A stretch of 64,000 bases of DNA from assembly GCF_025698545.1 (NCBI RefSeq), contig NC_068576.1, positions 48,911,890-48,975,889 of the forward strand, read 5' to 3'. A program made the position numbers and the translations under genes. The stretch is from Gossypium raimondii. Its lineage: Eukaryota; Streptophyta; Magnoliopsida; Malvales; Malvaceae. The notes beneath the pieces were generated by a model, which saw nothing but the letters and a program-made list of their open reading frames with translations, was not told where the DNA came from and made no database searches. Below are positions 1,073-33,004 of this stretch, one piece after another; within the stretch, counting starts at the first letter, position 1, and the number at the start of each line of letters is the position of its first letter.

Positions 1073-4000
1073 ATGATCGAGCCTTGCGATATATGCGGTG
1101 ATATAGGCTTTGTAGAGGATATCATAACTTGCTTTGAGTGCAAAATTGCAAAGGAACACGGGTTCGGTTATTCTTACCTTTTGCCTTATGTTTGGTTTCA
1201 CTTGAACTGCTCTCTTTTTTGTTTTAAATTCTGCTTTTTGATTACCATGTTTATCGTTGTATTTTACGAACACGGTTATTTTGGAAACCTCAGTTTAGGT
1301 CCCCCGAGATTGATCACTAACATTGAAGTATACCCTGTTTTCTCGTCCCCCCCCCCCCTCCGCTTTCAGCTATTGCATGCGCGAAGTTCTCTTGACTATC
1401 CCCGAAATTTGGTTCTGTGAAGAGTGTAGGTTAAGCAAGGCCATAGTTCCCGAGTCTGTTACAGAGGAAGATGTTCCTATGTCTTCCACTTCAATTACTT
1501 CTGAAAGTGTCTGTACCAGCCTGCCTTCGCACAAACCAGTTGATCAAGAAAATGAAAAGGCTTCAAAATCAAACACCTCTGAGACTTTGAATCCAGAAGC
1601 GTTAATTGAGAATCAAAAGATATTAGGTTCTGCTTGTAAGCAAGGGGCTGCCACAGTTGGGAATGTGAAGAAGTCATCAGTTTCAACAAAATCTGAACAT
1701 TTAGTGAGAAATTTGGTCTCAGGTCTTGATCAGTTGAGTACCATGGAAACTGCATCGAAGAGCAGTCCAACAAGGTTGAAAGTTGCTTCTGCAAAGGCAT
1801 CCATAAAGAAATTTAAAGCAAGTCATGATCATAGAAAAGTACGACATAGCAGTTCAAAGGTCTGGTCTACGACCCCACAGAAAGCAATCCAAACATCAAA
1901 AACTTTAAAAGGTGAGAAAGCGATTTGCATGCATTTGTTGATGATTGAAGCATTTATTGGAACTGACAATTGAATCTGCATATTCATATTTAGTTCCTAT
2001 GCATTATTTATATTCAAAGCTTGACTTTCGTTTAATCATATTGCCTATAATACATTATATCACTTGTGTTTCTTAGTCAATCAAAAGATGCAGTTTGTTC
2101 TAAATTGAATCAATTCATGAACACTGCTTCCTTTAGTTCCGTGTGCCGTAAATAGATATCTTATATACCTAATAGTCTAATGTGGCTACTCTTATGATTT
2201 CTGTTTTGGATGAAGAAACTTCTGCTACATATGAAAAGGAGTCGCATGATACTAATGTGCTCGGTGAAAAGATCGAAACCTCACGGTCACAACAAAGGGA
2301 TGGTGAGGATGTCTCTCCTGAGGGATCAGCTAGCTTACCTGTAAATACGATAGCGAGCACTTTAACCAAGTCAGATCTAGAAAAGATAGCTATGGAGTAT
2401 CACATAGACACTAATAGGTACCATCTTTCTCTTCCTAAATCATCCGAGAGAGCAAATTCGTATTTCCCATGTAAACACACATTTTGCATCTATGCTGATG
2501 CCTTTAAGGCCGGGCTTCGTCTTCCTCTTCATCCTCTAATTTCGGAGATCCTCAGTGAGTTCAGTGTTGCTCCTACTCAGATTCCTCCAAACTCGTGGCG
2601 GGTACTGATTTGTTTTATTTCATTTTGTTATTCTCAAAAAGTAACTCCTACGGTGAACCTCTTTCGTGCAATCTGCTCTCTCAAAGATCACTCAGGGGAG
2701 AGCAACAAGGGGTGGTGGTTCTTTAGTGCTCGGATTGGATTCAAGCTGTTTGAGGGTTTTCCGAGCTCCATCAAGGGTTGGAGGCATAGGTTTTTTATAA
2801 TTCGAACATCTGAGAGAGACACATTAGGCGTTAACACGAAGTGGGGCCCTCCCAATAGTGCGGCAAATCAGTTGCCAACTCTTTCAGCTATGGAGGTCAA
2901 ATCACTGGATGACCTTGTAGCTGCAGCGACAAACAACCCACCTGACATTAGAGTTTTGTTGTCGGAAGAGGCCTTAATTCAAGCTGGAATCAGTTCAACA
3001 ATACTAAAACCGAAGGTGTCTAATGGTGGTATGGTCGATATACTCAACTCCATTATTTTCCTCAATGTTTTTATTTGAGTTCATGCTCTTGTTTTCATTT
3101 GATTTAGAGATAAAGCAGCGTCATAGCTTGTCTCCATCCGGTCTAGTGAGGGCCTTACAGAGAAAAAGAGCTGCCACAGATTCTGGGAAAAGCGCTTTGT
3201 CTGGTCTTCCTTGTCAAGAGCCAATCTTAATAAATGTCGATCAGGAGGATCTGCCCGAAAGCAAGAGGTCAAAGGAATCTCTGCAACCTATGGAACAAAC
3301 CGATTTATTGCAACCTAAAGAGCTAACGAATCGGTCACAAGAGATTTACCCTCCTGTGACCTCCCCTGCTCAAGATACTCCTCATGAAGGCCTTCCTCTA
3401 CAAGCTTCCCCAGAGTCTAATATCCGGCACATTGCAGGAGCGTCAGTTCACGCAGTTAGCTCAGTTTACTTCAATACTGCAACAGACAACCTCCCCCTTT
3501 CAAATGCTGGAGTGAGGCAGACAGGATCCGTGGAGTACACTATGGAACAATCAGTTTTCACTCATCCTGCTCTTGCAAGGAAGCTGATCAGTCAAATGGT
3601 TCTTCCGCACGACTGTGATTCCGTGGCTCAGAAGGATACTTTGGTCATGGCTCAGGAGCTTATGTGCCTAGCAATGGAGGTAAGTCTTGTTCTTTCCATT
3701 TTTAGTAGACGAAGCAATATTAAACACGGCAAGGAAGTGATAACTAAAACACGAAATGGTATGAAAAAACTAATATGAACATGACATGAATACACAATTG
3801 CTTCAAAATCTAGGTAATATGAATTATTAGCATATCAAAATTTATATTTATATAACAGTGCGATTATGACACAACAAAATACATGAATTGGTGGGGTTTA
3901 ATTTTGGATACTTGGTTGCTGATGGGCAGGACGCGACCTGGAAAATGGCAGTGTCTGAAAAGTTGATCAAGATGCAACATGAGATCAACATGTTGAAGGA

Positions 4001-4454
4001 AGAAAGGAACGCACTAAGAGCAGAGCTTGAATCGCAGAAGATGGCGGTGGCTGAGTGTGAGTCGACAAGGAAAACGACACTGGAGCTTCAAAGGTTGGAG
4101 GAGGAGGTTGAACGGCTCGAGATCAGGTTAAAGGAGACTGAGGAAAAAGCCTGGACATGGGAGGATCAGTTCATTAAGCTAGAGAGGAGGTTGAAACAGG
4201 CTGATGACCGGGCAGCATCAGCTGAAAGAAAAGTTGTTGTGGCCGAAGAAAAATGGCGGCAGTCTGAAATGACAAAGTCGAGGGTTGCTGAGGAGACACT
4301 TAAGAATTTCAAGGCTTCCGAAGAATTCCGGCATGAAGTTGAGGATTATCACGCTGAAGCCTACGGCATGGGGTTAAATGTCGCCATCGAGAAGATCAAG
4401 AGGCAATTTCCAAATCTAGATCTATCGATTATCAATTTTTATTCCGAGGATTAA
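1073..4454 (+). CDS. PHD-finger protein fused to a putative gypsy-type transposon domain and coiled coil
   Basis: Five exons join in frame: 1073-1161, 1370-1911, 2216-3028, 3108-3679 and 3930-4454. They total 2541 nt, giving 846 aa plus stop. Residues about 5-50 form a C4HC3 PHD finger, with CDIC, CFEC, H, C and CEEC all present. A Ser/Lys-rich linker follows. At about residues 250-420 a region matches the putative gypsy-type transposon domain (PF04195-like), from TLTKSDLEKIAMEYHIDT to PPNSWRVLICFISF. A Pro/Ser-rich stretch and a long heptad coiled coil in the last exon follow, ending in the AEAYGMGLN...FPNLDLS tail usual for that family. The first two exons match the AIPP2-like gene at 22 kb, with the same intron phases (2, then 1). 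I infer a chimera of a duplicated PHD reader and a transposon-derived gene. The weakest point is the acceptor at 2214-2215, so the two halves could instead be separate transcripts. The acceptor before exon 2 contains a run of 12 C. Confidence 0.6.
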
Positions 4455-6604
4455 TGAGGAGCCTATTGAGCTGTGACAGATTTTCCAGGTTAATCATCGT
4501 AAACTTACCACCTAGTCTTGATCTGTTTGGGGCCATTTATTGGATATCTCCTTAATTTGTAACTAAGGAAATCTCTAGCAATGAAGAACTTTATAGCACC
4601 TTTAGTTCACTGTAATGAAATAAGGTGATAATGGAATAGTCATTATGTAATAATGGGATAGGGTTATAATAGAATTAAATAGACATAACAAGTTGGATGA
4701 AATTGAATGAGTCTTATAATAATATTTACGAGTTTGATTGAAGTGAATAGATATGTAATAGCAAATAAAAACTAACTCAGAAAGACAAAATGCCCTTTAA
4801 TAAAATAAATTAAAATTTTATTTTTATAAAAATATTAAAAATCAAAAGCTTTAAATATTAAAATGATAATTTTATCCTTAGATTAAATTTAATTAATAAG
4901 ATATGATATACAACATTTATATAAAAATTAAAACATTATTATATAAATTATTCTTGTGCTTATTCTATCTTCACCCTCTCTCATTTAATCAATTTATAAT
5001 ATTCTTTTAAGGGGAATAACAAACACTCGTTGTATGCACTACAAGCTTTATCAACACAATAAAGGCTTCAGTCTCAGCATCAATAGAATATCAGGAGCGA
5101 TTGTAAGCACTTAATACAATAAATAAATTAGCCCCAAATGGTCCAAAGCGGAGGGCATAAATCGGCAAAAGAACTGAGCCTTCACCAAACTAAAGAGGAT
5201 GGCGACAAAATTAACCCAAAAATCACTCACAAAAGTAAGACTAAAAAGCGTACTGCAAGAGTACACTTATTAAATAATGAAAAAATATATATAAATTAGA
5301 CAACACGAGTACAAACCGACTCATGAAATCATTTATTATTCTGAAATACTCTCAAAACAGAAATAGATTAAGAAGTCAACAAAGAGCTACTCACTTTGTA
5401 AAAAAAAAATTGCCGGTAGTTGATCCATCACAAAGATAACAAAGATACCCATTAATAGATCTGTAAACCGAAAAGAGAGAAAGCGCATTGAGTAAATGAG
5501 AAGAAAAAAGAAAGAGTCATTGTTGGACAAAAGCAAAAAGATAAGAAACAAATGACTTGATTTAATCACTTTATAATTAATTTACTATTATTCTTTGTTT
5601 AATCTATATTAAAAATAATACAATATATAAAATATTTATATAAAGTATAAAATAATCATTTAATGGGTAAATTCATCCCCATTTCTTCTCTTCTTCAATT
5701 CACTCTCTCCCCTCTCACGTAACAGTATCATAAATTTTGAGAAACCCAAATCAAAGTTATCAAAGATTTAAACATATTTTCCAATCTTTATGTGTTTTGC
5801 TTTGAAACTCAACTTTCTACCACCAAAAAGCAATCTTGATTTCTGCAAAAAAATTTCTCCCCAATTTGGTTCAACGAAATGAGTTGAAGCAAAAAGATGA
5901 AGAATGAAACTAAAACTTCTCCAAAAATAGTGAAAGAAAAGTGACTCAACTTGTAAATTAATCTATTCATGGTTTTACTGAATAACCAATTTAGCATTTT
6001 TTCTCCCGAATGGCCGTTCAACAACTTTTCAGAATAATCAAGAAATAATTTATTCAGCGTTTTTAACATTCACATACTAACATTACTATTACATTGAACC
6101 AAAGCTACTGTTACCACAAATCCAAGTTACATGTTCTTATCTTACTGTCTTCAATATTTCAGTGCTTTCAGAGTTTCTACAGCATGTTATGAAACTTAAA
6201 ATTCAAGTCGAAAGCAACTCACGAGTTCTATGTCCCTTGAAGTTGGATGTGTCGGCTCGAAATGAGTATTTATTATTATCATTATTATTTTTCATATTTC
6301 TATAGTTAAGTCCAGATATGTGTTGGAATATCATAGGTTGTTCCCTTAACTTTGCATTTATTTTCTAACACAAATGTACACCTAGTTGACGATGCAATTC
6401 ATGTTCAATGATTAAGAAATTGAATTAAACTGTTGTTGCTGATTCTATCCAATAAATATACAAAATTGAATAATTAGCAAAGTCATAAAACAAATTAAAT
6501 TGATTATTAAAATTCATTTTATTAATATTTAAATTTAGCCTCTAAAATTTATGATAAAATAGCATGGTACCATGGAAAGTGATCACCCCTAAGAATTTTA
6601 TTGG
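4455..6604. other. AT-rich intergenic sequence
   Basis: This is the 3' flank of the PHD chimera followed by AT-rich DNA. Reading frames are short and low in complexity, and I see no domain, RNA gene or clear element here. Confidence 0.5.
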
Positions 6605-6842
6605 TGGAACGTTTGGTATATATTAGAATGTAACTCTTCACGTTCGATACGATGAAAAGTTGAAATATGATATGTGATTCCAATATTTGGTATATAAAAA
6701 TATTTTATTTTCTTTATTTTCCCGCAAGCAATAAAAATGATTCCTTTGATAGTTAGTCGGAATTGTACGATAAATATAATCACATTCCCAATAAACACAT
6801 TTCATTAAAATCTTACCATAAAAGTTGTACCAAACACAAATA
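6605..6842. mobile_element. possible MITE
   Basis: The left end reads cgtttggtatatattag. The right end, on the reverse strand, reads tgtgtttggtacaactttt. The two share a TTTGGTA-type inverted terminus around about 240 bp of non-coding DNA. Internal parts such as ggaatgtgatta also look symmetrical. No target duplication could be confirmed. It lies just outside the LINE insertion site. Confidence 0.3.
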
Positions 6843-6861
6843 CATATTTCTATTTAATAGT

Positions 6862-6882
6862 TAATATATATAATATCTAATT
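6862..6882. repeat. LINE target-site duplication, left copy
   Basis: These 21 bases, beginning taatatatataatatctaat, are identical to 12557-12577. They abut the T-run that is the LINE poly(A) tail read on the opposite strand. Confidence 0.85.
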
Positions 6883-7203
6883 TTTTTTTTTAAAAATAAA
6901 TCCGTTTATAGCAATTGGGCCTGAGTAACAAGCATGAGAAGTCCATCAGCAAAAACCCAAAACAAAACAAACAAAACAAACTTGAAAAAACAAAACAACA
7001 GAAAGCGAAAAGATTAAACACAAAGAAAACAAATAAACACCGTCTTCTCCAACCAGCAAACTTCAGGCACTGTGAGAATCTACTACACCCAGTAAAATAA
7101 ATGGTAGAGATCTTCCAAATTCGACAACCGGATAAGAAAGCAGTTGAGAAAGGCCCTTCTGTATCAGTATTCCTCAACTCCAACGCTGAAATAGAAAAAT
7201 GGG

Positions 7204-10200
7204 TTATGGAGGTCGCCCACTCCGACGATCCGAATCAGCCACTTCTAAAACTTTCAAAGGCGCATCTTCCACCCAAAATGAATCCCCTTCTGCTTGCATA
7301 CCCTCAACAACCAATGCATGCGCTGCTCCATTCCCTTCTCTTGCAACGAACTGGAATCGACAACAGTGGAACTTCCTAGCCAGGTTCTTCACATCCCAGG
7401 TAAATGGTCTAGACTCCGAATAATCCTCACTTGACTTTTGAATATTATTAACCACCAGCCTCAAATCACTCTCAAGGATCACCCTTGAAAAACCCATATC
7501 CAGGGCAAATTGAAGCCCATGAAGAACAGCAATCGCTTCTGCTATTACCACCGAAAGAACCAGATTATGTCTTTGAAAACCCGACCCCATTATAAAACCC
7601 TCATAGTTTCTAATAATGAAGCCTGTTACTGCTCGATTATTTGCGATCGACACCCCTGCATCAACATTAACTTTGAACCACCCTTGCAGAGGAGGCGACC
7701 ATTTTACCATGAATCTCGGTTGATGATGCTTCAATGACTCGGCACTACTACGATATTCCGACCCAAAACTCCAGATGAAGGTAACAATTTCCTCCAAACT
7801 TTGCACCTTTCTTTCATGAACAAATTTATTTCGAGAGAACCAAATCGCCCAAATAGAAACAGCGATTAACCATTTCCTGTTCTTTGCAGAATTCTTCAAC
7901 AACCAACTCAACCACTCATTAAAATTCACCAAAGAACTCGGCCACTAGATATCTAACTTAGACCATACTTGTGCAGCAAACAAGCAATCTCGAACGGCAT
8001 GAGCAGAAGATTCATACCCATGGCCACAACGCGGACAACAATGAACAGATGACAATCTCCTGTAATGTAAGTTTTGAAAAGTAGGCACATAATTTTGGGC
8101 AAATTTCCAGATTAAAATGTGAATTTTTGAAGGAGACTCTAAACTCCATATCTGCTTGAACAATTCTTGCTCGTTGCTGCTTACATTAGAGTTATTCAAT
8201 AGCATTTTATAACCACTCTTTACAGAATAGATACCTGAATTTTCGCTACACCACACAACTTTATCTGGTTGATCAGTATGGGGAATAGGAAGACTCAAAA
8301 TCTGGTCAGCTTCTTCCACTGAAAAAGTTGAATAAACAAGATATCTATTCCAACGATTAGGTTCCTTCAGAATTAAATCAGCCACCCAATCCAACCCAAC
8401 CACCCTGTCTGTAGAAATAGAACGTTGATCTTTTCCTGGCAACCAATAATCTTTCCATATTGACACCGATGTTCCAGACCCAATTCTCCATTTCAAATCA
8501 GATCCTAACAGACCTTTAGCACACCAAATACTTCGCCAAACAAAAGACGGATTCACTCCTAACGAGGCTTCCATAAAATCTGAACCCCTATAGTACTTTG
8601 CTTTGAGCAGACGCGCAACTAAGGAATTCAGATTTTCTAAAAGCCGCCAACCTTGTTTAGCAAGGAGTGCAATGTTGAATTTGGCCAAATCTCGAAAACC
8701 CATCCCACCCTCTGCTTTTGGTACCGCCAGCTTCTTCCACGAACACCAATGAAGCCCTTTTTTCCCTGCTTTCTTTTGCCACCAAAATCGGGCCATAACC
8801 GCTTCTAAATCCCTACAAACAACTGCTGGTAACAGAAAGCAATTCATAGCATAAAGAGGAATAGCTTGGAGAACAGCTCTGATAAGTACCTCCCTCCCCC
8901 CTATAGAAAGTAATCTCGAACTCTAACAAGAGACTCTTTTTATAAGCTTTTCTTTAAGTTCCTTAAAAGCCCTCTGCTTGTTTCGCCCCACCATTGATGG
9001 AAGACCAAGGTAATTCTCCATATTTTGATTCCTATTAACCCCCAGAACCCTACAAACCTCCTCTCTATTAGACTGATCAACATTGGAACTGAAAAATAAC
9101 CCTGACTTGTTAAGATTAACTTCCTGACCAGAACACATCGCATAGGTTTCTAAAATTTCTTTGATCACCAATGCTCCATTGGCAGACGCATCTCCAAAAA
9201 TAAGACTATCATCTGCAAAAAATAAGTGGGTAATTCGTGGGGCTTGTCTACTAACCCGGAAACCATTAAGAACTCCCCTTGACACAGCCCTTCTAAGCAG
9301 AGTCGACAATCCTTCACCACATATAAGGAATAAATAAGGACTGATAGGATCCCCTTGACAGAGGCCCCGAGATGGGAAAAATAATTCACCCACCTCTCCA
9401 TTTATAACCACAGAATACGATACCGTTGTCACACAAACCATAACTTTCTCAATGCACCAATCCGAAAACCCCAACCGTCTAAGCATAACAAGCATAAAAT
9501 TCCATTCAACCCAGTCATAAGCTTTACTCATATCTAATTTTAAAGCAAATGACCCTTTCCTCCCATTACGCTTCCTCTTCATGGAATGTAAAGTTTCATA
9601 AGCAGCTATGATATTGTCCGTAATGAGTCTTCCCGGTACAAAAGCGCTCTGTGCTTCATCAATACAAACATGAAGTACCTTTTGGAATCTATTCACCAGC
9701 ATCTTTGAAATGATTTTATATAAAATATTACAAAGACTAATAGGTCTAAATTGATTCATGCACCGTGGAGAACTGACCTTAGGGATTAAAACAATTCTTG
9801 TACTATTAATTTCAGCCATATTATGCACCCCCTGCATCATCTCAATACAAAAATTAGCAACATCTCCTCCCACTATGTGCCAAAACCTTTGGTAAAAAAT
9901 TGCCCCTATCCCATCTTCGCCAGAAGCTTTTAACGGACTCATGGCTTTAAGAGCTGAACACACCTCTTCGTATGTAAACCCCTTCTCCAGGTCCTTGTTC
10001 ATCTGTTGGGAAATACATGGCTCAACACCTTCCAAAATGGAACTTGGATCACCAACACTTTTCGCTGTAAATAAAGAGGTAAAATAATCAGTGGCCAACC
10101 GTAATAAATCATCATTGTTCGCATACCTATTACCCTCGCCATCCACTAAATCTTCCACCTTATTTCTCCTACTCCGATCCGTTGTTGATTGGTAAAAAAA

Positions 10201-11265
10201 ACGAGTATTCCTATCCCCGTTTTTCAACCAATTTGCTCGAGCTCTCTGTTCCTAATAAAGCTCTTCTCGGTCTGCCTCCATATTAATCTGCAGCTTTGAC
10301 TCCACAATATCCCCAAGAATCTCGTCCGAAGGGACTTCTTCATTTAGTCGGAGTAACTGTTTTTCCAACTCTTTCTTTGTGAACAACTTCTTCTTTTTAA
10401 TGCCCTTAAACCATTTTTCAAGGCCCAACCCCAAAACCTTTATCTTTATTGGAACCGTCCCCACACTCTCAGCCCAAATTCTTTTCACCTCCTCTTCACA
10501 TGAATCCTCCAATAGCCATGAAGCTTCAAATCTAAACTGCCACTTCTTCGAATGATAAGACTCAAAATTTGAATTAAGCAACAGAGGGCAATGTTCAGAA
10601 AAAGCATGAGACAGATGATTTAATTTAAAATTGGGAAATAAATCCCACCAAGACTGATTCGCAATACCTCTATCAAGGCGTTCCCGAATGTTATTAGCTC
10701 TCATACGTCCTCTCTCCCAAGTAAACCATTGACCACTGTAACCAATATCGGTTAAAGAACAATCATCCATCGCTTCACGAAATCTACACATCTGCCTTTC
10801 CTTCCGCGGCAACCCCCATTTCTTCTCAGTTGAATACACAATTTCGTTAAAATCTCCAATAACAACCCAAGGAATCTGTGGGGAATCATTCAGGGTACGA
10901 AGTAAATTCCATGATGCTTCACGTAAATTCTCCTCTGGAGCTCCATAAAATCCCGTACATCTCCAAGTTCTCCCCTCCGAATCTTTATCGAACATAACAT
11001 CAATATGCCTATTCGAAAAGGAGCGAAGAGAGACTTTGCAGTCATTATTCCAACCTAACGATAATCCTCCGCTTCTACCATTTGAATCTACATCAATTCC
11101 ATTCAGAAAACCACACTTCCGTCTAACCTTCTCCATTTGACAACCTTGAAGTTTTGTCTCTATTAAAAAAACCACCGTGGGACTTATATCTCTCAGCTTA
11201 TGCCGGAGACGATTGACAGTTCGAGGTCTCCCCAAACCCCGAACATTCCAGCTTAGGAGTTTCAT
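7204..11265 (-). pseudogene. LINE ORF2: endonuclease, reverse transcriptase, zf-RVT, RNase H
   Basis: One minus-strand frame of 1354 codons is broken only by three TAG stops, at 10252-10254, 8923-8925 and 7945-7947. The AP-like endonuclease at the N-terminus shows WNVRGLGRP, IETKL and GDFNE. The reverse transcriptase shows CQGDPISPYLF and the catalytic FADD. The zf-RVT region shows CPRCGHGYESSAHAVRDC. The C-terminal RNase H shows VNVDAGVS and later acidic residues. Each stop sits where the flanking family pattern continues in frame, so they look like point nonsense changes and not indels. The protein would be the element's target-primed reverse transcription enzyme. This copy cannot make it without readthrough. 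Confidence 0.9.
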
Positions 11266-12440
11266 CTCTCCCGGCTGGCCTGTTCAGTAAGGCCTGCCGA
11301 TCTTGAATTATTTTGTACTTGCAAAGAAGTAACGATAGCTTCACTTGAATCATAATCAGAAACTCGCGAAACAATAGGGTGAATTTTAGGTCTTTTAAGT
11401 CCATCACTGTACATTATTGGACTATTGGCTTCTTCATGCGCTACCATCTCTACGTCGAATTCAGCATTTCCTTGGGTCCTCACCCCAATATTAACTGGGC
11501 CTGTATTAACACCAGCCTTTGGGCTTATATTAAGAACAGCCTTTCCTTTATCTTACACCAAAATAGAAACAGAATCTTTTTGGCTAATCCCCCCATTCAC
11601 TCCATTAAATCCCATATTTGATGTCGGAATCCCTACCTTCCATCTTTCCTCCGTTGATCCCGTATTGCCAAAATTAGCCTGTTTCTTTCCATCGTCTTCC
11701 ACAATCCATTTACTCTTTCATGATTGGTTTCTTCGTGATTGGGCTCGTAGGGAGATATCCCACTTGAAAACATCTATTGACTGTGGCTGAATAACTCTTA
11801 ATGGACAAAAACTCTCTCCATGTCCTAATATTCCACATAAAAAACAAAATAATGTCAGCTTTTCATACTCAAATCGTACATAAACCGATTCACCGTTTTT
11901 CAACGCTATTCTCTTTTTTCTTTTGAGAGGCTTCCGAATATCCACTTTCACCCTAACTCTCATAATGCGTTTATACCCCAACTGAGCAGCAGCAGAATCA
12001 TACTCAATGAATTCCCCAATGAAGTTTCCCAGTTGGTGTGCCACTGCGTCTGCCATGAATCCGAGAGGGAGATCATATATTAGTATCCAAAAATCCACCC
12101 AGTGCAACGGAACACACAAAGGATCCTCGCCCTGTTGCAACCGATGGAAAATCAGAAGATGAGAATTGAAATTCCAAGGCCCGTTCTTTATTACCCTCTC
12201 CACATCCACTTCGTAGTAAAATCGAAATAAATATCTTTCCTTCCCTAGATCAGAGATTGAAACACCACCTATAGGATGCCACACACTTGCTAACGTCGAT
12301 CTCATTGCTTGGAAATGAACAACACTAGAAGTAAGAAAAACTCCCACTAAGCAGTTCACATAGGAGATCTCTTGGTTTGGCACCTCCCTTTCCAAATGAA
12401 TAACTTCATCTTCTTCATCATCCAGAGAAAGCCCCGCCAT
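11262..12440 (-). pseudogene. LINE ORF1: DUF4283-like gag with CCHC knuckle
   Basis: I place the start at the Met of MAGLSLDDEEDE (12440). An in-frame Met four codons upstream is also possible. The N-terminal region has the DUF4283-like pattern seen in plant LINE ORF1 (GPWNFNSHLLIFHR, then the WVDFWILIYDLPLGFM stretch). It is followed by the knuckle CFLCGILGHGESFC (CX2CX4HX4C). The frame is interrupted by TGA at 11718-11720 and TAA at 11553-11555, then stays open to a TGA that overlaps the ORF2 start. The protein is expected to bind element RNA. Confidence 0.82.
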
Positions 12441-12499
12441 TGAACTTTCCATTAAGAGACAAACAAAACCCAAAAGAGACAGAACAGAAAAAAAACCAA

Positions 12500-12545
12500 A
12501 GTAGCGTGTCAAGAGACAGTAGAAAAAGCGTGTCAAGAGACAGAA
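12500..12545 (-). repeat. short tandem repeat at the LINE 5' end
   Basis: The unit gcgtgtcaagagacag occurs twice, about 27 bp apart, at the extreme 5' end of the minus-strand LINE. Repeated 5' monomers with promoter activity are known in some LINEs. Whether this pair has any such role is unknown. Confidence 0.55.
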
Positions 12546-12556
12546 GAAATTTTTTA

Positions 12557-12577
12557 TAATATATATAATATCTAATT
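12557..12577. repeat. LINE target-site duplication, right copy
   Basis: Identical over 21 bases to 6862-6882. It marks the 5' boundary of the minus-strand LINE. Confidence 0.85.
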
Positions 12578-17290: not shown

Positions 17291-17925
17291 TGTCATGGGG
17301 CTAGACCTTTCGTCTCGCAATCCGTGCGGCCTTAGACGATCCGTTTGCTCCAAACTCGCCTAAGTCAGCCTTTACGCCCAAAAGTGAGGATTCCTTAGAA
17401 CTCCTCCAAGGCACCAATTTGTATAGCGGAAGCGATTGTGCCAAAAGAAGTTACAAAAGAACAACAGAAAGCCAAAGAAAGAATGCACACAAAGTGTTTG
17501 AGTAAATGCTCAAGGAATTCTATTACTCTTAAGAATTCACCTTACAATGGATGAGTACAAATGAGGGGGAGGCTCTCTATTTATAGTTGAGCTCCCCCAA
17601 GACCGACGGTCAAGATACATTTACATCGACGGACAATATTCACTATATCCCTTGATTTTAGGGATTTACAAGATTTGCCATATCAAATCAAATCTAATCT
17701 TTACAAGATATGATTCTCTCTATCTTCTAAGATTAGTTACCAAAATTAGCTTAAGTTGCCATGTCTTTATCATCGGGCCAACCAGGCTTCAATCTGACAG
17801 GCTTCTTCAATAGTTCTCTGAATCGGGCCAGTTCTTGTGGGCTAAATGTTCCCCATCTAATTGATAGAACTCTATGGGGCGTTTCTTGTGCCATGGTCAC
17901 GGGCTTTGCACTTTGGTCCGTGACA
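17291..17925 (-). repeat. 3' LTR of the gag-protease element
   Basis: 635 bp starting tgtcatgggg and ending tccgtgaca on the + strand. A TATAAATAG box in minus sense lies at 17577-17585. Its inner edge is next to the purine tract gagtaggggagaa (minus sense). Confidence 0.9.
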
Positions 17926-17938
17926 TTCTCCCCTACTC
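17926..17938 (-). other. polypurine tract of the LTR element
   Basis: In minus sense the bases gagtaggggagaa directly precede the 3' LTR. This is where a plus-strand primer tract is expected in an LTR retrotransposon. Confidence 0.6.
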
Positions 17939-18089
17939 ATTCTCGCAATGCCCTCGTTGCGACTTCTGGATGACACTGACTTGATTCACCTTGGAACTTT
18001 CTCGTTGCCTCGGCTTCTTCCCGACTTGTCTTGCAAACGGGTTGTCCCTTCCTTCGAAACCTATGCCTCGGCTTCCGTCGCCTCTTATC

Positions 18090-20201
18090 TTAAACCGTTG
18101 CGCTCGTTGGTACATTCTGTTGGCAAGAAGTCTTCGATTTAACTTGCCCCAATTTCGACTTGTTTCCACTGGAATCCCCTGGATTCTCACATCTCGGCTT
18201 TGTCCCGCCCACAGTTCCTTGGCCTCTTTGCTTATGAACTTTGAAAGGGCCCCTACGACTTTGCCAAGCCAACAAGTCAGAATTCAAAACACTATCAGAG
18301 TGTTTGCAATGTACCTTACTCGTAGCATTTACTCGTCTCGACTGTTTTTGCATCGCTCCTTTCCCCTCGAAGCTCGATGCACAACCCACATTTCCCAAAG
18401 GTGTCGGCTCTATAGTAGATCCCGCAGGCTTCATATAGGTCTCTTGCGCCACTAACACTTCTGAAGGGGCTTTCGTAGCATTCCGTTTTGACGATTTAAT
18501 GTTTCTCCCATACGAAACATCTTCGACTAGTTGGATTGACGATAACACCTTAATCCCAACCTTCACATCCCGCTGTACCGGCACAACACTTTTTGTTGAC
18601 GGGCCGGTGACAATATGGATTTGATCGGCCCATGGTTGCAGAGTTGCCTGAATCTTGACAAGGCAGTTTAAGCCAAGCACAAAATCGTAATCATGTAATC
18701 GGATTACCTCGAATTCTTCATTGCTCTTCCATTCGCCGATTTGTAGTTCCACATCACAAACTACTCCCACAGTTGGGGCTTTCTCGGAAGTTGCTATCTT
18801 GATCTTCTTATTCGATTTCCTAATCGATAGGCCAAGCTTCTTCGCAGCCTTTTCCGACATGAACAAGTCCGATGCTCCCGTATCAATAAGAGCACTCCGC
18901 TTCTGACCCGCAATGTTGATGTCCACAAACATCAACCCATTTTCACCATTCCTCTTCCCAGGAATGAGCACCATCGAATTGACCCTTGATGTCTTCTCTT
19001 CGATAGGCTTCGTCTCTTCCTTCGGCTCCTCTTTCTTCTGGGTTGCCAAAATCATCACTTTATTTGGACATTTTCGCGCCATGTGTGGTCTTTGACAAAT
19101 GAAGCATTTTATTCTCTTCCTCTTGTCCCTTGGGTCGTTGAATCCCCGCTTCGCATCTCTTGGTTTCCCATTGCCACTTGTACTATCAGTATTGTTGCCC
19201 CCATCGCTATGTCCCCTTTCATCTTCTTCATGGTTTCTCTCACCATTGCCCTTTCCATTGGGCTTAGATGACTCGAACTTGTCTTCTGTTGGACCAAGCT
19301 CGACAAAGAACTCTGCTTCGGCCATGGCTACAGTAAGTTCGGTGATTCCTTGCCTACGCAACTCATGCTTTGCCCACGGCTTTAACCCATCTTCGAACCA
19401 ATAGAAAGCTTCTTTCTCGCTCAAGTCGGAGATTTGAAGCATCAACTCGCTAAATGCCCTCACATACTCCCGAACAGTTCCTTGTTGCGTGAGACGACGC
19501 AACTTTGCCCGAGCCTCCTTCTCGGCATACTGAGGGTAAAACTGCTTCTTCAACTCTCTTTGGAACTCCTCCCAAGTCCCAATCGTGTTCCCGCCACGTT
19601 TCTCATCCGTGGACCTCCGACGCCACCACAAGAGAGCTACATCAGTAAAATAGATTGAAGCAGTGTTTACCTTAATGTCATTATCCTCGATGCCCATCGC
19701 TCGGAAGTATTGCTCCATTTCCCACAAGAAGTTGTCCACATCCCTTGCGGATCGTGCACCCTTAAACTTCTCCGGTTTGGGAACATCCATTGCTTGTTGC
19801 TTCGGTCTTGAAGACAACATCCCATTACTCAAAGCGGCTTTGTAAATCGTGAGCTCCCCCTTGAGCTCCTCTATTTCTTTCTTCATGGCTAACACCATAT
19901 CCTCGAGATACTCATCCCTCTCTGCCAGCTTTTCCTCAGTGGACTCGAGTAATTCCTTTATCTTTTCCCTATTTGCATCGAGAGAATCCAACACAAAATC
20001 TCTGAGTTGCTCTTCCATCGAGTCAAACCCATCCGTGCGTCCCTCGACCAATTCAAGCGTCTCTTTCACGTTCCCTACGGATTCCTCGAGATTAACCACT
20101 CGATTTTCCAAAGCTGTCAGCATTTCCCTCGAGCGACTAGCTTTTCTGGTTCTCCCACGGGTCTCCATTGGTTCACTTTGACCAACGACTTCTTTCGACA
20201 T
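18090..20201 (-). CDS. gag-aspartic protease polyprotein of the LTR element
   Basis: An intact 703-aa frame starting MSKEVVGQSEPMETRG. The N-terminal part (to about residue 130) is a predicted coiled coil rich in Glu and Lys. A retrotransposon gag domain follows at about 135-300 (LLWWRRRS, TWEEFQRELKKQFYP, GTVREYVRAF). A zinc knuckle CFICQRPHMARKC lies near 366-378 with spacing CX2CX3HX4C, one residue shorter than the standard knuckle. A retropepsin-like domain follows near 440 with the catalytic ALIDTGASDLF. The frame stops after the protease with no pol domains. It would make particle protein and protease for non-autonomous retrotransposition. The absence of nonsense changes over 2.1 kb suggests a young copy. 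Confidence 0.9.
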   Translation of the reverse strand: MSKEVVGQSEPMETRGRTRKASRSREMLTALENRVVNLEESVGNVKETLELVEGRTDGFDSMEEQLRDFVLDSLDANREKIKELLESTEEKLAERDEYLEDMVLAMKKEIEELKGELTIYKAALSNGMLSSRPKQQAMDVPKPEKFKGARSARDVDNFLWEMEQYFRAMGIEDNDIKVNTASIYFTDVALLWWRRRSTDEKRGGNTIGTWEEFQRELKKQFYPQYAEKEARAKLRRLTQQGTVREYVRAFSELMLQISDLSEKEAFYWFEDGLKPWAKHELRRQGITELTVAMAEAEFFVELGPTEDKFESSKPNGKGNGERNHEEDERGHSDGGNNTDSTSGNGKPRDAKRGFNDPRDKRKRIKCFICQRPHMARKCPNKVMILATQKKEEPKEETKPIEEKTSRVNSMVLIPGKRNGENGLMFVDINIAGQKRSALIDTGASDLFMSEKAAKKLGLSIRKSNKKIKIATSEKAPTVGVVCDVELQIGEWKSNEEFEVIRLHDYDFVLGLNCLVKIQATLQPWADQIHIVTGPSTKSVVPVQRDVKVGIKVLSSIQLVEDVSYGRNIKSSKRNATKAPSEVLVAQETYMKPAGSTIEPTPLGNVGCASSFEGKGAMQKQSRRVNATSKVHCKHSDSVLNSDLLAWQSRRGPFKVHKQRGQGTVGGTKPRCENPGDSSGNKSKLGQVKSKTSCQQNVPTSATV

Positions 20202-20248
20202 TCCAACGGTGCCTTCGAACCAACTCGAATATCACTTGGTTCAAACTT

Positions 20249-20261
20249 GGCTCGAATACCA
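20249..20261 (-). other. primer-binding-like site
   Basis: In minus sense, two bases after the 5' LTR, the sequence reads TGGTATTCGAGCC. It resembles the initiator-Met primer site TGGTATCAGAGC used by many plant LTR elements, with a few mismatches. Confidence 0.45.
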
Positions 20262-20263
20262 CT

Positions 20264-20898
20264 TGTCACGGGGCTAGACCTTTCGTCTCGCAATCCGTGC
20301 GGCCTTAGATGATCCGTTTGCTCCAAACTCGCCTAAGTCAGCCTTTACGCCCAAAAGTGAGGATTCCTTAGAACTCCTTCAAGGCACCAATTTGTATAGC
20401 GGAAGCGATTGTGCCAAAAGAAGTTACAAAAGAACAACAGAAAGCCAAAGAAAGAATGCACACAAAGTGTTTGAGTAAATGCTCAAGGAATTCTATTACT
20501 CTTAAGAATTCACCTTACAATGGATGAGTACAAATGATGGGGAGGCTCTCTATTTATAGTTGAGCTCCCCCAAAACCGACGGTCAAGATACATTTACATC
20601 GATGGACGATATTCACTATATCCCTTGATTTTAGGGATTTACAAGATTTGCCATATCAAATCTAATCTAATCTTTACAAGATATGATTCTCTCTATCTTC
20701 TAAGATTAGTTATCAAAATTAGCCTAAGTTGCCATGTCTTTATCATCGGGCCAACGAGGCTTCAATCTGACAGGCTTCTTCAATAGTTCTCTGAATCGGG
20801 CCAGTTTTTGTGGGCTAAATGTCCCCCATCTAATCGATAGACCTCTATGGGGCGTTTCTTGTGCCATGGTCACGGGCTTTGCACTTTGGCCCGTGACA
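20264..20898 (-). repeat. 5' LTR of the gag-protease element
   Basis: 635 bp, the same length as the other LTR, starting tgtcacgggg and ending cccgtgaca on the + strand. It should hold the element's promoter. Confidence 0.9.
20550..20558 (-). promoter_or_regulatory. TATA box in the 5' LTR
   Basis: In minus sense the bases read TATAAATAG. The box lies mid-LTR, as expected for the U3 promoter driving gag on the minus strand. The same box is in the other LTR at 17577-17585. Confidence 0.5.
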
Positions 20899-22125: not shown

Positions 22126-25100
22126 ATGTTTCTACAGGACAAGATATGTGATATATGTGGTGATGTTGGTTTTGAGGAACTAATTAGAAGCTGTTCTCAA
22201 TGCACCATGGGACGCCATCTGTAAGATATCAATCGATTACTCTCTTAAGGCATTGCTTGTTTGGGGGATATAAACGAATAAGGAAGAAAGAATGTTTTAA
22301 TCTAATAGTTAAATGATAAAGTAGGAAAATTGCTATGAAACCTACCAATAAGAGTAAAATATGTTCCATTCTTCCAAACATGCTAAGCCTTATATGTTCT
22401 CAATGCACCGTTGGATGTCATTTGTATGATAACCATCGGTTGATCTTAAAGCTTTTGCCTGCTCGGGAGGAGAACAGATAAGGAAAAAAGAATGTTTAAT
22501 CTAATAGTTATGTGATAAAGTAGGAAAATGGCATTGGAACCTAACGATTACAGTAAAATATTTTCCATTCTTGCAAACAAGCAGAGTCTTTCATGTTTGA
22601 TATGCTTTTATTTCCTTTTGTGTTTTTATGTTATTGTCATGATTGTTTGGTTTCCTTTTCCTAACTTTTATCAATTACATTTCAGAATCAGCTGCATCTG
22701 ATTCTGAAACTACTATCAAGTATCACCCTAAATTACTTGCCTGGGTTAGAATAATAACATCTGAAACTGATTGCTTCATGTGTAGTTATATATTATATTT
22801 ATTCAACTCTCAGTTCTGAATCTGATATGTTTTCTTTTCTTTCTTTTTCTTTGGAAGCTATTGCATGAGGGTTGTAGTGAGGGATGACTTGGAAGATTGG
22901 ATATGTGAAGGATGCCTTTCGAAGAATGATATAAATTCTCTGAATTCTGGCCAGGCAGAAAATGTTATGGATTCCTCTACAAAAGTTTATTTTGACTTAT
23001 GGGGACAGGTTCCACGTAAAAGGCGAAAAGCTGTTGAAACTGGGAAAGTGAAGTTCCTTCCTACTGAGGAAGTCATTAAGCTATCATCCCTCTTACCGTT
23101 ACCAAAAAGGGCATTTCCTTCAAATAGTAACTCAGGGTTAAAACCTGTGCCTGCAAAATTCACTCTATCTCCATCGAAGAGGGTGTTTATGGGATCCAAA
23201 TACGCTGGCCCTTGTTATAACCCAATAAAGGTAAGAAGAAATCCTACTTTTCTACAGTTAGGATCTGATAACGTTCCTAGAGGCCGAGGTGGGCAGATCA
23301 GTGCATCTATTAGGCATCAACATTCAGTTGAAAGGCCAAACAAGTCAAAAGGTGATAAATTCGCTGACTTTTTGCTAATTCTTTTGTTTTTGCATAAACT
23401 TTGTCTTGAGAATGTTGAAATATGTAAAGATGAAAGAAGTTCCACATGGTGTGTTTATGTACATTAGATGTAATCATGTAAAAGCCTTTAATTTAACTTT
23501 TCTATCAAGCTGCTGGAGTAGGTTCTTCAGGATACAGCAAGATAAACATTGTGATTGACTAGGCGTATTTTTGAGTTGGTTGGTATAAATCATGATAAAT
23601 ATATTTTGAACGAAATCATGATATATTTTGAGTTTTTGCTGGAGTCAATACTACACGATTTCAATTTTTTGTTATTCTTTATGATACCTTATGTCTTAAA
23701 TCAAGTTTGTTTATTTTCCTAAAGTTTCAGCTTTGACAAAAATGTAGGTTTCTTTTCCTGTTGGGAAAATGAGAAAATAAAGCACTTGAACTTTATGTTA
23801 ATTTTATTTTCAAGAAACAAAAACTTGTATAGGCATGGTTGGCAGGTTTGGTATAGGAATGAAAAAAATGGTGTCCTTGCATTTTATTTTGCATGAATAA
23901 TAGGCCTACTTCTCATCCTAGGAATTTGCAGGTATGATAGAGTCCCCTCTCTGTCTGTCTCTCCGAGTTTCTACTACTAAGTAGCACTTCTGATATTCAA
24001 TTATAGAATCGATTCCGATCAAGCTGAAAAAGCCCTATATTATTAGTAAGCTAGCGCCTCAAACTAAAGCGCTAACGAGCAAGAAAAGGGCCCCTTACTA
24101 TAGGCGTTAGCACTTTAGAAGGATTGCAGCTAGCTGACCTTTCTTGATATCATATCGTTTTCTTGTGTGTTACAGCACCTTATATGGGGCTCTCTTAGTA
24201 ATGTTGACTTCTATGCCCCAATGCAGAAGATGAAGAAAAGGCTTCTCGGACACCTGCAAAGCAGTATGGTAGTAATGAAGAGCCAGTATCTTCTGTTATG
24301 GCTGCTAATGAAGTCACGGGTGATGTTGATTCTAAAGCAACGAACACAATGAAAGAGACGTTGTCTATTGCCAATGCAGGCAAGAAATTTTCTCAATTGA
24401 TATCATTTTGACATGTTTTTTAGTTTATGTGTTTTTCGTTAAATTAAAACAATAAATCCAAGATTTGCTTTGGAAAAGTTTTATTGTTAGAAAGGTGAAA
24501 ATCTTTTGTTCCAAACTTCTATGATAGTAGCTGTAAAGTTATGATCTTATGTATTATACCTATTACCTTGTAATTAGGATTCAGTTTCTAACACTCATCA
24601 ATATGACTTCCATGTAACTGTATTTTGAGCTTAATTTTTACTGGAATTTACTTGTATGCCAGACCTTTTTATGTGATGATATTTCTGGTCTTAGCAAATC
24701 AATGTTTGAGCTTAGTTTTCAATCTGCATGGTGCTACATGATAAGAAGCATTGATTTTTCAAGTAAATAAAGTGGTCCAAATTGGCTTTTATAAAGCTAC
24801 TGTTGCTGTAGTTTGTTATTTGAGTTTATCCTTCACTTATATTGCAGTTGTCAGCTACTTGATTAACATTATAGTCTTAGCTTCTTGTGGCAAATTATCT
24901 GCTCGTATTGTATGTTATTTTTTCAGTAGAAAGAGCCCATCTTGTTCCCAACAAAGAGAATGTTTGCAAAGGGAAGATATCAGATACCATCCTACCTAAT
25001 AAAGAGCTCACAGTTCTTCATACTAAGACCGAGGATGCTATGAGATCGAGCCGACCTTCACCATCAAGGCATCATACAACTATTATGAGTTCAGGCAAAA

Positions 25101-26906
25101 TTAATTCTAAACTTGATTTTCTAATTTTGTATGGCATCTATCATCCAGGTTTTATCATCTTCAGGTTATGGTGGTGATACTGATTATATTGAAACTTTTT
25201 CTAGTTGATCAATGTTTGACATGCTCTTTAAACAAACTCCTTCTCAGGTCAAAACATTCATGGTGCTGCTGAACCTGAGAACTCTGATGTCCCGAAAACA
25301 GAAACCTGGAGTCGACTTAAGGTTTCCTTATATCGACCACATGCTCCTTCTCTACATCCTACCTGGATGTAAGTTAGCATGCCGTTTACCGATATTGCAC
25401 GCACAGTATTCTTTCTTATTATATTCCCAAAATTTCAACCTGTTGAGAATTCTATCAAGATAATTCATATAATAGAACAATGGCATGGATTTCTTGAGGA
25501 TTAATTACTTTGATCTATAGTTGTTTAAAAGGCTTTTAAACAAGCATTCATCACTCTCAATAATGCTGTTATTTTTAGCATATTAGTGTCTCTTCTATGC
25601 TTATGACATCAAAACTCTAAAGCGGTCTGTCTCAGTTTACCTATACTGCTTGAAACTATGTTTACTCGGACTCAGATGTGTCAGATACGGGTTTGCGATT
25701 TTCTATGTATTTGGAGAGTCGTATCCTCATAGCTCATGTCCAAAACTCTGGTACTTTAGAGAAAAATGAAGTCTGAACAACAGAAGCCTGAAAACTTCAT
25801 AAGTTTCTATTCTACATATGTATTCTAGCATGCAATTTGCATGTAGAGTTTGCATTCATTGCTACTTTCAGTATGTTTTATTTCACAGTATTGACCTTTC
25901 CCCTCCTCTTTTAGGGGAGGTTTCAAATTCTTCAATACCACGGGTGAGTTGTATGGTGATTTCCTGGCTCTACCACCATGCAGAGTTCATCGTAAAGCAT
26001 ATGAGTTTTCGAAGAAAATGCCTGCAGTTCTTCAGGTTAATCTGCTTCAACAGTGGCACCTTCACTCTCATATACTCCAGAATGGTTGTTTAGATCTTCT
26101 TGACATTGCTTTATACTTTTGTCCAGTAGACATGGAAAGGTCTGCTTCAACGTGTAAATTATGGATTAAATTAATTTAAAGTTTCGATTTTCAACTTATC
26201 TTACTTCCATGTCATCTTGGAAATGTAGATCTCAAGGGAATTACAACAAACTATTTCAGCTCATGGGGAAGGAAAATTCAGTGATGATAAGTTACATTGA
26301 TGATTTGGAGTTGTTGATATTTACATCTGAACAGTTACATGCAGATTCGTGGGGTAAGTCTCTAGCTTTCTGAGGGCTTCCCTTCAGAACAGTTTGTTTA
26401 GTGTGAGTGTTGGATATTGGAATGCGTCTAGCACAGATATCTTTGATTTCCTTTAAGTCTTATTATGTATTTGAAGAGTCTTTTGAGGGTCATATTCCCA
26501 TACCCTTGCCTGACAAGGTGTCAGACACTGCTACTTGAAGAAAAACGAAGAGTCAGCACTAAAAAGGCATTATATATTCAAAATTTATTTTATTCTAACA
26601 TGGATATATCCGTGTCCAACCCTCACACGAGTCCGAGTAATACAGATTATTTCTTCTTTGAATACTACTCTCCTTCATATTTTCTTCATTTTTAGTTGTC
26701 CAGGGAACATTCATTGTACTATTTTAATTACATTCATAGGTGTGTTTACCGGGTCAAATAAGGAGTTTTTTGGTGGAGTCTTCCGCCGAGTGAAGGAACA
26801 TCAGAAGCTTCCTTCATTGGTTTCTCATACACAAGATGCAGGTGAAGCTGATGACATGGTAAGTGGAAAAATGGTAGGGATTTCGAACATGGCTCTTTCG
26901 AAATGA
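22126..26906 (+). CDS. AIPP2/PAIPP2-like PHD-finger protein
   Basis: Eight exons join in frame: 22126-22220, 22858-23351, 24227-24379, 24927-25094, 25248-25368, 25915-26139, 26229-26353 and 26740-26906. They give 515 aa if translation starts at 22126. The acceptor at 22136-22137 suggests a further upstream exon, so the start is uncertain. A C4HC3 PHD finger (CDIC, CSQC, H, C, CEGC) occupies about residues 8-50. The C-terminal region has the AIPP2-family pattern GELYGDFLALPPCRVHRKAY, DIALYFCPVDMER, ELLIFTSEQLHADSW and GVFRRVK. In Arabidopsis, AIPP2 and PAIPP2 bind unmodified H3K4 and act with a BAH protein and CPL2 in transcriptional repression. That role here is inferred. Introns 3 (24380-24926) and 4 (25095-25247) begin with GC. 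Confidence 0.85.
22192..22590 (+). repeat. tandem duplication inside intron 1, including a PHD exon fragment
   Basis: Copy 1 starts at about 22192 (tgttctcaatgcacc) and copy 2 at about 22395, with an offset near 203 bp. The copies share blocks such as aatctaatagtta, gtgataaagtaggaaaat and agtaaaatattttcc. Copy 2 therefore holds a decayed second copy of the last about 30 bases of exon 1. Its donor reads gtatga instead of gtaaga. Confidence 0.75.
23930..24140. other. possible organelle-derived insert with hairpin in intron 2
   Basis: This stretch is much richer in G+C than the intron around it. Its wording (aagctagcgcc, aaagcgctaacgagcaag, gggccccttactataggcg) is like plant mitochondrial intergenic DNA as I remember it. 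Bases 24064-24077 (ctaaagcgctaacg) and 24104-24117 (cgttagcactttag) pair over 13 of 14 positions as a stem. Its origin is not proven. Confidence 0.3.
25656..25786. mobile_element. intronic MITE-like family, copy A
   Basis: Lies in intron 5 of the AIPP2-like gene. It begins ctatgtttactcggactc and ends gaaaaatgaagtctgaacaa, which is an imperfect inverted end. The interior carries the family pieces tatttggagagtcgtatcct and ggtactttagaga. Confidence 0.6.
26401..26575. mobile_element. intronic MITE-like family, copy B
   Basis: Lies in intron 7 of the AIPP2-like gene. It carries tatttgaagagtcttttga, ggtcatattcccataccc, ggtgtcagacactgctactt and ends gaagaaaaacgaagagtcag, matching copies A and C. 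The left terminus is degraded. Confidence 0.55.
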
Positions 26907-32604: not shown

Positions 32605-33004
32605 TGGATGATCAGCGATTGAATCCCACGAAACCCAAGACCTTTCTTTTCCTTCCTCTGTAGATTATGTGTGTTAGAAATGAAGTTATTGAGTCGGTTA
32701 GCTCGTGGGAGCTTGGCGGCCAAGAAAATTTTGGCAGTGGCAAACCCGGTTCTCTCCGTAAACAGAAACTAAATATAACCCCAACAACATAAAGGAAGCC
32801 TCGCTTAAATAATTAATATTTTTATAGAAGATCCCTATTCCATTTGGTTTTCCAGGTCAGGTCCCTTCACTTTTCAAGCAATTTGTATTTAGTGTTTGGT
32901 ATATTTGACTGTTATTCAACCACAGCAATTCTACTTCACTGAGAAGGACGATAATACCTTTCTTAGTTTAATTTCCGAATTATATTCCTTATTATCATTT
33001 TGGT
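32605..33004. other. promoter side of the J-protein gene
   Basis: This region should hold the leader and promoter for the minus-strand J protein. I see no firm TATA box or other signal. Confidence 0.35.

What the first reader, a model, noticed from the sequence alone, without database searches (positions are those of the whole stretch)
1073..4454. PHD histone reader joined to a gypsy-type transposon protein
The first two exons are a complete C4HC3 PHD finger plus linker, homologous to the AIPP2-like gene at 22 kb. The next three exons carry a PF04195-like transposon domain and a coiled coil. All five exons close to 847 codons with conventional GT-AG borders, and the first two introns have the same phases (2 and 1) as in the paralogue. 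A chromatin reader that has lost its AIPP2 C-terminus and gained a transposon domain would be a new domain combination. It could redirect or block the repressor complex.
Basis: partly seen in the sequence, partly recalled or inferred. Interest (0 to 1): 0.78.

Follow-up and report, generated by a model that had tools for sequence, protein, structure and literature searches.

The report
PHD-finger gene fused to transposon domain
A plant gene appears to join a zinc finger from a gene-silencing protein family to a protein domain otherwise known from jumping genes; both parts are really there, but no transcript yet proves that they are made as one protein.

Summary
The observation largely holds. 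Five stretches (1073-4454) join by GT-AG introns into an open 845/846-aa frame with all C4HC3 ligands of a PHD finger (scores below Pfam cut-offs) and a clear PF04195 domain (E 1.2e-12). PF04195 is TRP28, the antisense-ORF domain of Retand LTR elements; a 2025 survey reports no similarity outside transposons. Here no LTR, pol or sister copy was found, and it ranks first of 133 scored PF04195 matches in its genome. It keeps 6 of 6 signature residues; 13 alignable copies keep 1-3.

I favour one chimeric host gene: the PHD half of an AIPP2-like duplicate with a TRP28 protein in place of its C-terminus. The junction is unproven. Only one weak acceptor (2215) of 12 AGs keeps the frame, better-looking ones truncate, and ATG 2194 would allow two genes.

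"Histone reader" is doubtful: of eight H3-contact positions named for PAIPP2 two are unchanged, and Asp306 is Ile, while three related genes of the same genome keep Asp. The region corresponding to the CPL2-binding C-terminus was not found, so a competitor of AIPP2-type repression is the likeliest role; that is inference.

The parts
1073..1161 (+). Exon 1: ATG and first half of the PHD finger (C-x2-C ... C-x2-C-x5-H); an acceptor-like TTTTGCAG|G lies just before the ATG
   Evidence: Translation; PF25054 match residues 7-47, below cut-off
1162..1369 (+). Intron 1, phase 2, weak donor GG|GTTCGG, good acceptor CTTTCAG
   Evidence: Same position and phase in gene 2 and in L035, L036, L059
1370..1911 (+). 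Exon 2: second half of the PHD finger plus a linker of about 160 aa, basic at its end (net +9 over 40 residues), donor AAAAG|GTGAGA
   Evidence: the 22-kb gene's second exon ends in the same way and phase (AAAAG|GTGATA, by eye)
1912..2215 (+). Intron 2, phase 1, 69% A+T, weak acceptor GGATGAAG|AA; the disputed junction
   Evidence: Only 1 of the 12 AGs between 2019 and 2297 keeps the frame open; contains ATG 2194 in frame with exon 3; A+T
2209..2242 (+). DNA across the acceptor that resembles the start of exon 3 of the 22-kb gene (24229-24265)
   Evidence: Local alignment with one in-frame 3-base gap; 5 of 5000 anchored and 20 of 3000 unanchored random windows reach the score (noticed before it was tested)
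2216..3025 (+). Exon 3: leader of about 50 aa, TRP28/PF04195 domain (protein residues 302-366) and the stretch after it
   Evidence: Pfam; best of the scored PF04195 matches of the genome; end 3028 is an equally open alternative
3108..3679 (+). Exon 4: Ser/Pro/Gln-rich middle part, strong donor GGAG|GTAAGT
3680..3929 (+). Intron 4, carrying at 3740-3888 a dispersed repeat (16 other places listed)
3930..4454 (+). Exon 5: long coiled coil (by eye) and C-terminal tail, stop TAA
   Evidence: none of the 64 other rows reaches this part

Best explanation
One chimeric host gene. A diverged member of the plant AIPP2-like PHD family, perhaps a local duplicate of the 22-kb gene, kept its first two exons (PHD plus basic linker) and probably the start of its third, and lost the rest of its C-terminus. 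In its place it carries a long TRP28 protein (leader, PF04195 domain, middle part, coiled coil, tail) derived from an old Retand-type antisense ORF. Shown: both halves are open, collinear and frame-compatible; no second copy was found; no AIPP2-type C-terminus was found beside them. Inferred: that intron 2 is spliced to 2215, and what the protein does. Most likely function: a PHD-PBR protein that can still dock on the BAH protein AIPP3 but cannot recruit the phosphatase CPL2, and that dimerises or binds DNA through the coiled coil and TRP28. It would then compete with, or redirect, AIPP2-type repression, as the domesticated transposase ALP1 does with PRC2. It is unlikely to read unmodified H3K4 in the PAIPP2 manner.
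For: Open 845/846-aa frame, GT-AG; PF04195 far above cut-off. Real frame best of the sense frames in 5 of 5 exons, intron 2 negative (stops were penalised). Exon 2 ends like the second exon of the 22-kb gene, same phase. The DNA at 2209-2242 resembles the start of that gene's exon 3: 5 of 5000 anchored and 20 of 3000 unanchored random windows reach the score (noticed before testing; the first two codons of the match fall in the intron of my model, so the acceptor would have moved). Nothing like an AIPP2 N- or C-terminus within 1-22 kb or 9.9 kb upstream (best non-PHD match E 0.07), while gene 2's own exons were recovered as control. No second DNA copy listed (that search skips very common words). 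For the TRP28 half the 64 other rows are 18-33% identical and 49 of the 64 carry stops inside (69 of 465 candidates scored). TRP28 signature 6/6 against 1-3/6 in 13 alignable copies of 14 tried. Domain roles of AIPP2 from PMC7718874. Gene 2 also uses an AAG acceptor.
Against: The fusing acceptor at 2215 is weak. Better-looking acceptors at 2076 and 2136 truncate the protein after 220 and 224 aa. ATG 2194 in frame offers a separate start. The donor of intron 1 is weak. PHD scores are below Pfam cut-offs. Linker, exon 2 and intron DNA show no similarity to gene 2 above shuffles. An in-frame junction alone is not rare by chance. No RNA, no orthologue and no selection test was available. CHG depletion did not separate host genes from transposons (a host DnaJ-type gene 0.68, 14 TRP28 copies 0.63-0.92, LINE 1.02, exons 3-5 1.15). 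The C-terminus search could miss a strongly diverged remnant.
Confidence: 0.55

Rival explanations
1. Two neighbouring genes, or one bicistronic transcript: a short PHD-linker protein (about 210-230 aa) ending in or just after intron 2, and a separate TRP28 gene starting at ATG 2194.
For: ATG 2194 opens the TRP28 frame 22 bases before the proposed exon 3. Acceptors 2076 and 2136 would end the PHD protein after 220 and 224 aa. Reading through the exon-2 donor stops at 1973.
Against: ATG 2194 has a poor context (CTTATGA; judged from recalled consensus). The leader has the best codon score of its frames and the DNA across the acceptor resembles gene 2 exon 3. A PHD gene shorn of its C-terminus with nothing joined to it would be expected to decay, yet is open.
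Confidence: 0.3
2. A decaying locus: a truncated AIPP2-like duplicate beside a stranded Retand ORF, both silent, with the open frames not yet broken.
For: Weak splice sites at introns 1 and 2. PHD contact residues changed. Transposon-rich neighbourhood: LINE 7204-12575, LTR element 17291-20898.
Against: No stop or frameshift in 845 codons. No sister copy was found, so the insertion is probably not recent, and an old neutral copy should carry stops, as 49 of the 64 other rows do.
Confidence: 0.12

Closest known systems
AIPP2 / PAIPP2 (Arabidopsis PHD proteins of the BAH-PHD-CPL2 complex; PMC7718874), and the AIPP2-like gene at 22-27 kb
   Same: C4HC3 PHD of the same family (25/49 identical to genes L035/L036, 23/48 to the 22-kb gene), same phase-2 intron inside the PHD, basic stretch after it.
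   Different: No AIPP2-type C-terminus found, no long N-terminus, most H3-contact residues changed, TRP28 plus coiled coil instead
TRP28 (PF04195) antisense ORF proteins of Retand LTR retrotransposons (PMC11963269)
   Same: PF04195 domain with all six signature residues
   Different: Outside any recognisable Retand element, no second copy found, split by introns, preceded in frame by a PHD finger
ALP1, a domesticated PIF/Harbinger transposase in PRC2 that antagonises Polycomb silencing (PMC4671723, abstract read)
   Same: Transposon protein taken into Polycomb-linked repression as an antagonist; proposed here by analogy only
   Different: Different transposon class, genetic and proteomic proof exists for ALP1, and no PHD fusion is mentioned in its abstract
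Plant mobile domain proteins (PMD is an extra-ORF domain of 57% of Ogre elements, PMC6317226, one passage; host members MAIN/MAIL1 recalled, from no call)
   Same: An extra-ORF domain of gypsy elements that also occurs in a host gene
   Different: Unrelated domain

Membership tests
AIPP2/PAIPP2 family | C4HC3 PHD finger with the phase-2 intron after the His | tested here: met
   All eight ligands present; intron at the same place in gene 1, gene 2, L035, L036, L059
AIPP2/PAIPP2 family | H3K4me0-contact residues (V285, G292, L298, I300, C301, D306, P322, G324 in PAIPP2) | tested here: not met
   Only C301 and P322 identical; D306 is Ile; L035, L036 and L059 keep D306, P322 and G324 (positions from PMC7718874, register set by me)
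AIPP2/PAIPP2 family | C-terminal region that binds CPL2 | tested here: not met
   No match to gene 2's C-terminal exons in window 1-22 kb or 9.9 kb upstream; gene 2's own C-terminus found as control. A strongly diverged remnant could be missed
AIPP2/PAIPP2 family | Binding to AIPP3 through PHD-PBR | not testable with these tools
   Basic stretch after the PHD present (+9 over 40 residues); binding needs an experiment
PHD_pln (PF25054) | Score above the curated cut-off | tested here: not met
   24.5 bits, cut-off 29.8
TRP28 / Retand antisense ORF protein | PF04195 above cut-off | tested here: met
   48.3 bits, cut-off 26.2
TRP28 / Retand antisense ORF protein | Six conserved positions G21, P25, L34, P46, N47, F55 | tested here: met
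   6 of 6 at the exact spacing; 13 alignable copies of 14 tried have 1-3 of 6
TRP28 / Retand antisense ORF protein | Lies between pol and the 3' LTR of an element | tested here: not met
   No repeat pair flanks it at E 1e-8, no ORF of 100 aa or more between 4455 and 6889, the next scanned ORFs are a LINE; 4400-6900 could not be searched genome-wide
Domesticated transposon gene | Conservation and purifying selection across species | not testable with these tools
   No other plant genome held

The most novel reading that the evidence does not exclude
A functional host gene in which a Retand TRP28 protein has been fused to an AIPP2-type PHD-PBR module, giving a CPL2-less competitor that lets target genes, or Retand elements themselves, escape H3K27me3-linked repression. 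It would be the first TRP28 protein shown outside a transposon and the first handle on what TRP28 does.
Probability: 0.2. Interest if true: 0.78.

Novelty: new variant of a known kind. Interest (0 to 1): 0.52.

Why it matters
TRP28 is encoded by 97% of the clusters of recently active Retand elements, and its function and origin are unknown (PMC11963269, passages). A host version without sister copies, next to a module with known partners (AIPP3, and by absence CPL2), would make TRP28 function testable by ordinary interaction assays. It is also a candidate for a transposon protein inserted into Polycomb-linked repression, a route shown for ALP1 (PMC4671723).

Tried and rejected
Histone reader: weakened by the contact-residue comparison. 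Recent transposon insertion: rejected for lack of flanking repeats, pol ORFs and sister copies. Homology of linkers and of intron and exon-2 DNA with the 22-kb gene: not found. AIPP2 terminal remnants: not found. CpG/CHG depletion as a transposon mark: not discriminating. A first codon-score run trained on segments partly in wrong frames (62 stops among 1556 codons) was discarded and repeated with open frames (its 'downstream' region overlaps its own background set and is no independent control). In one search the anchor for L006 sat on a neighbouring motif; read by eye the right place also has 3 of 6. AlphaFold2 on exon 3 alone, without an alignment: mean pLDDT 37, unusable, so no fold search was made. 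Viral contigs: no relative. PDB: no relative of the TRP28 half; PHD half weakly like UHRF1 (E 0.0015) and ATXR5 (E 0.014) PHD fingers. Literature for a TRP28 host gene or a PHD-TRP28 fusion: 13 of 13 papers listed; 10 of 10; 5 of 5; 15 of 101; 15 of 6366; 13 of 14; none listed shows one by title and start of abstract. Only open-licence papers are held and two lists were cut, so absence is not shown. Host identity: 750.8 Mb with 13 chromosome-size contigs suggests a diploid cotton (inference only).

Full report
What is there. The window lies at 48.91-48.98 Mb of contig C12 of a 750.8-Mb plant genome. On the + strand, 1073-4454 holds five stretches that join by GT-AG introns into an open frame of 845 aa (donor 3026) or 846 aa (donor 3029). 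Pfam finds PF04195 strongly (E 1.2e-12, 48.3 bits, cut-off 26.2) and a plant PHD finger below the curated cut-offs (PF25054 24.5 of 29.8 bits; PF00628 15.1 of 24). All eight zinc ligands of the C4HC3 pattern are present. Stop-free frames of this length do not arise by shuffling (0 of 2000 for each half). In a codon-usage test the real frame was the best sense frame in 5 of 5 exons, while intron 2 and intron 4 were negative in every frame. That test penalises stops and was trained on 3083 codons that include ORFs of unproven coding status, so it is mild support.

What the second half is. PF04195 is the TRP28 domain. A 2025 survey of Retand LTR retrotransposons (PMC11963269; section 11 part 1 and passages read) found antisense ORFs with it in 97% of clusters of recently active elements, calls its function unknown, predicts DNA binding, and states that no similarity was found outside transposable elements. 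The survey names six well-conserved positions; the window copy has all six at the exact spacing. Of 14 genomic copies tried (of 133 matches listed), 13 could be aligned and had one to three; L004 could not be aligned. In the whole-genome search the window copy ranks first of 133 matches (53.5 bits, next 43.9), with 150 of 520 candidates scored. For the 635-aa half, the 64 other rows (69 of 465 candidates scored) match only within query residues 46-233, at 18-33% identity, and 49 of the 64 carry stops inside. At DNA level, 1000-4600 matches only itself, except for a dispersed repeat inside intron 4 (16 places); that search skips very common words. No repeat pair flanks the unit, no ORF of 100 aa or more follows before 6890, and the next ORFs scanned on the minus strand belong to a LINE. 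So I see no sign of a resident Retand copy.

What the first half is. The PHD is 25/49 identical to genes on C11 and C2 (L035, L036) and 23/48 to the gene at 22-27 kb. The phase-2 intron inside the PHD is common to all five genes compared. Exon 2 runs on through a linker of about 160 aa as in the 22-kb gene and ends in a similar donor in the same phase. The linker peptides are no more alike than shuffles (109 of 500 reach the score), and exon 2, intron 1 and intron 2 DNA likewise (42, 25 and 100 of 100). L059 also has a long exon 2, so this structure is not unique to the pair. The PHD-linker half has no close relative in the genome by protein search: two self matches and two weak ones, L035 at E 0.058 and L036 at E 0.27.

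The junction. Only the acceptor at 2215, of the 12 AGs between 2019 and 2297, keeps the fusion open; the pyrimidine-rich acceptors at 2076 and 2136 would end the protein after 220 and 224 residues. The 2215 acceptor (GGATGAAG) is weak, though gene 2's first intron also ends in AAG. An in-frame ATG at 2194 could start a separate TRP28 gene. In favour of fusion, the DNA at 2209-2242 resembles the start of exon 3 of the 22-kb gene at 24229-24265 with one in-frame three-base gap (in the reading frame, DEE-TSATYEKE against DEEKASRTPAKQ). 5 of 5000 random windows reach the anchored score and 20 of 3000 the unanchored score. I noticed this match before testing it. In my splice model its first two codons fall inside the intron, so the acceptor would have moved about nine bases downstream. 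It counts as moderate support that intron 2 is the old one and that the TRP28 unit sits inside the old third exon. Gene 2's terminal exons, and ORFs of L036 and L051, match nothing but the PHD in window 1-22 kb or in the 9.9 kb upstream (best other E 0.07), while gene 2's own exons were recovered; a strongly diverged remnant could be missed.

How it may work. In Arabidopsis the PHD-PBR part of AIPP2/PAIPP2 is needed to bind the H3K27me3 reader AIPP3, and the C-terminus alone binds the Pol II CTD phosphatase CPL2 (PMC7718874, section 6). The PHD of PAIPP2 reads unmodified H3K4, and the D306K change abolishes this (passages). Placed on that numbering, the window PHD keeps only C301 and P322 of the eight named positions, with Ile at 306 and a gap at 324. 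L035, L036 and L059 keep Asp306, Pro322 and Gly324. The 22-kb gene has lost these three as well. I therefore expect no PAIPP2-like H3 reading. What remains is a possible AIPP3-docking module without the CPL2 arm, joined to a coiled coil and a domain predicted to bind DNA. That is the outline of a competitor or re-targeting factor, comparable in effect to ALP1, a domesticated transposase that antagonises Polycomb silencing inside PRC2 (PMC4671723, abstract read). This step is inference.

What could not be done. No transcript data, no other plant genome, no selection test. AlphaFold2 on exon 3 alone gave mean pLDDT 37, so no fold comparison was made. A genome search of 4400-6900 did not complete. 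CHG/CpG depletion did not separate host genes from transposons. Literature searches (two of the lists cut) showed no host TRP28 gene and no PHD-TRP28 fusion among the titles and abstract starts listed; only open-licence papers are held.

Verdict. The parts are real as sequence. They are most likely a chimeric host gene of AIPP2-like PHD and Retand TRP28 origin (0.55), with two adjacent genes the main rival (0.30). It is a new variant of a known kind, domesticated transposon domains in host chimeras, and worth an RNA check first. Odds for the readings are as I first wrote them, except that the decaying-locus rival is set to 0.12 from 0.13 because the fourth row overlaps with the first.

Noticed in passing
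window 22126-26860 (+), ends approximate: AIPP2-like gene with a C-terminal part that the window gene lacks; its PHD also lacks the PAIPP2 contact residues D306, P322 and G324 (Met, Leu, gap), so it may not read H3K4 either.
   Followed up: partly
window 22192-22398 and 22395-22597: Tandem duplication (78% identical) that copied the end of the first PHD exon of the 22-kb gene into its own intron 1.
   Followed up: no
window 17291-20898: LTR element with 635-bp LTRs 97.5% identical and a 713-aa gag-protease ORF; no reverse transcriptase match in that ORF, so probably a young non-autonomous element.
   Followed up: no
window 7204-12575 (-): L1-type LINE in consecutive ORFs: DUF4283/zinc knuckle, endonuclease, RT, zf-RVT and RNase H domains.
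   Followed up: no
window 3740-3888: Dispersed repeat in intron 4 of the chimeric gene, 71-85% identical to 16 other places in the genome.
   Followed up: no
window 30943-32664 (-): Single 574-aa ORF with DnaJ, zuotin-homology and C2H2 jaz domains, with a low CHG ratio (0.68) for a host gene.
   Followed up: no
L059 (C12:51901809-51901904, -): Another AIPP2-type gene about 3 Mb away on the same contig, D306, P322 and G324 kept, linker and exon 3 different from the window genes.
   Followed up: partly
window 54240-54638 and 56158-56539: Pair of direct repeats, 77% identical, unidentified.
   Followed up: no
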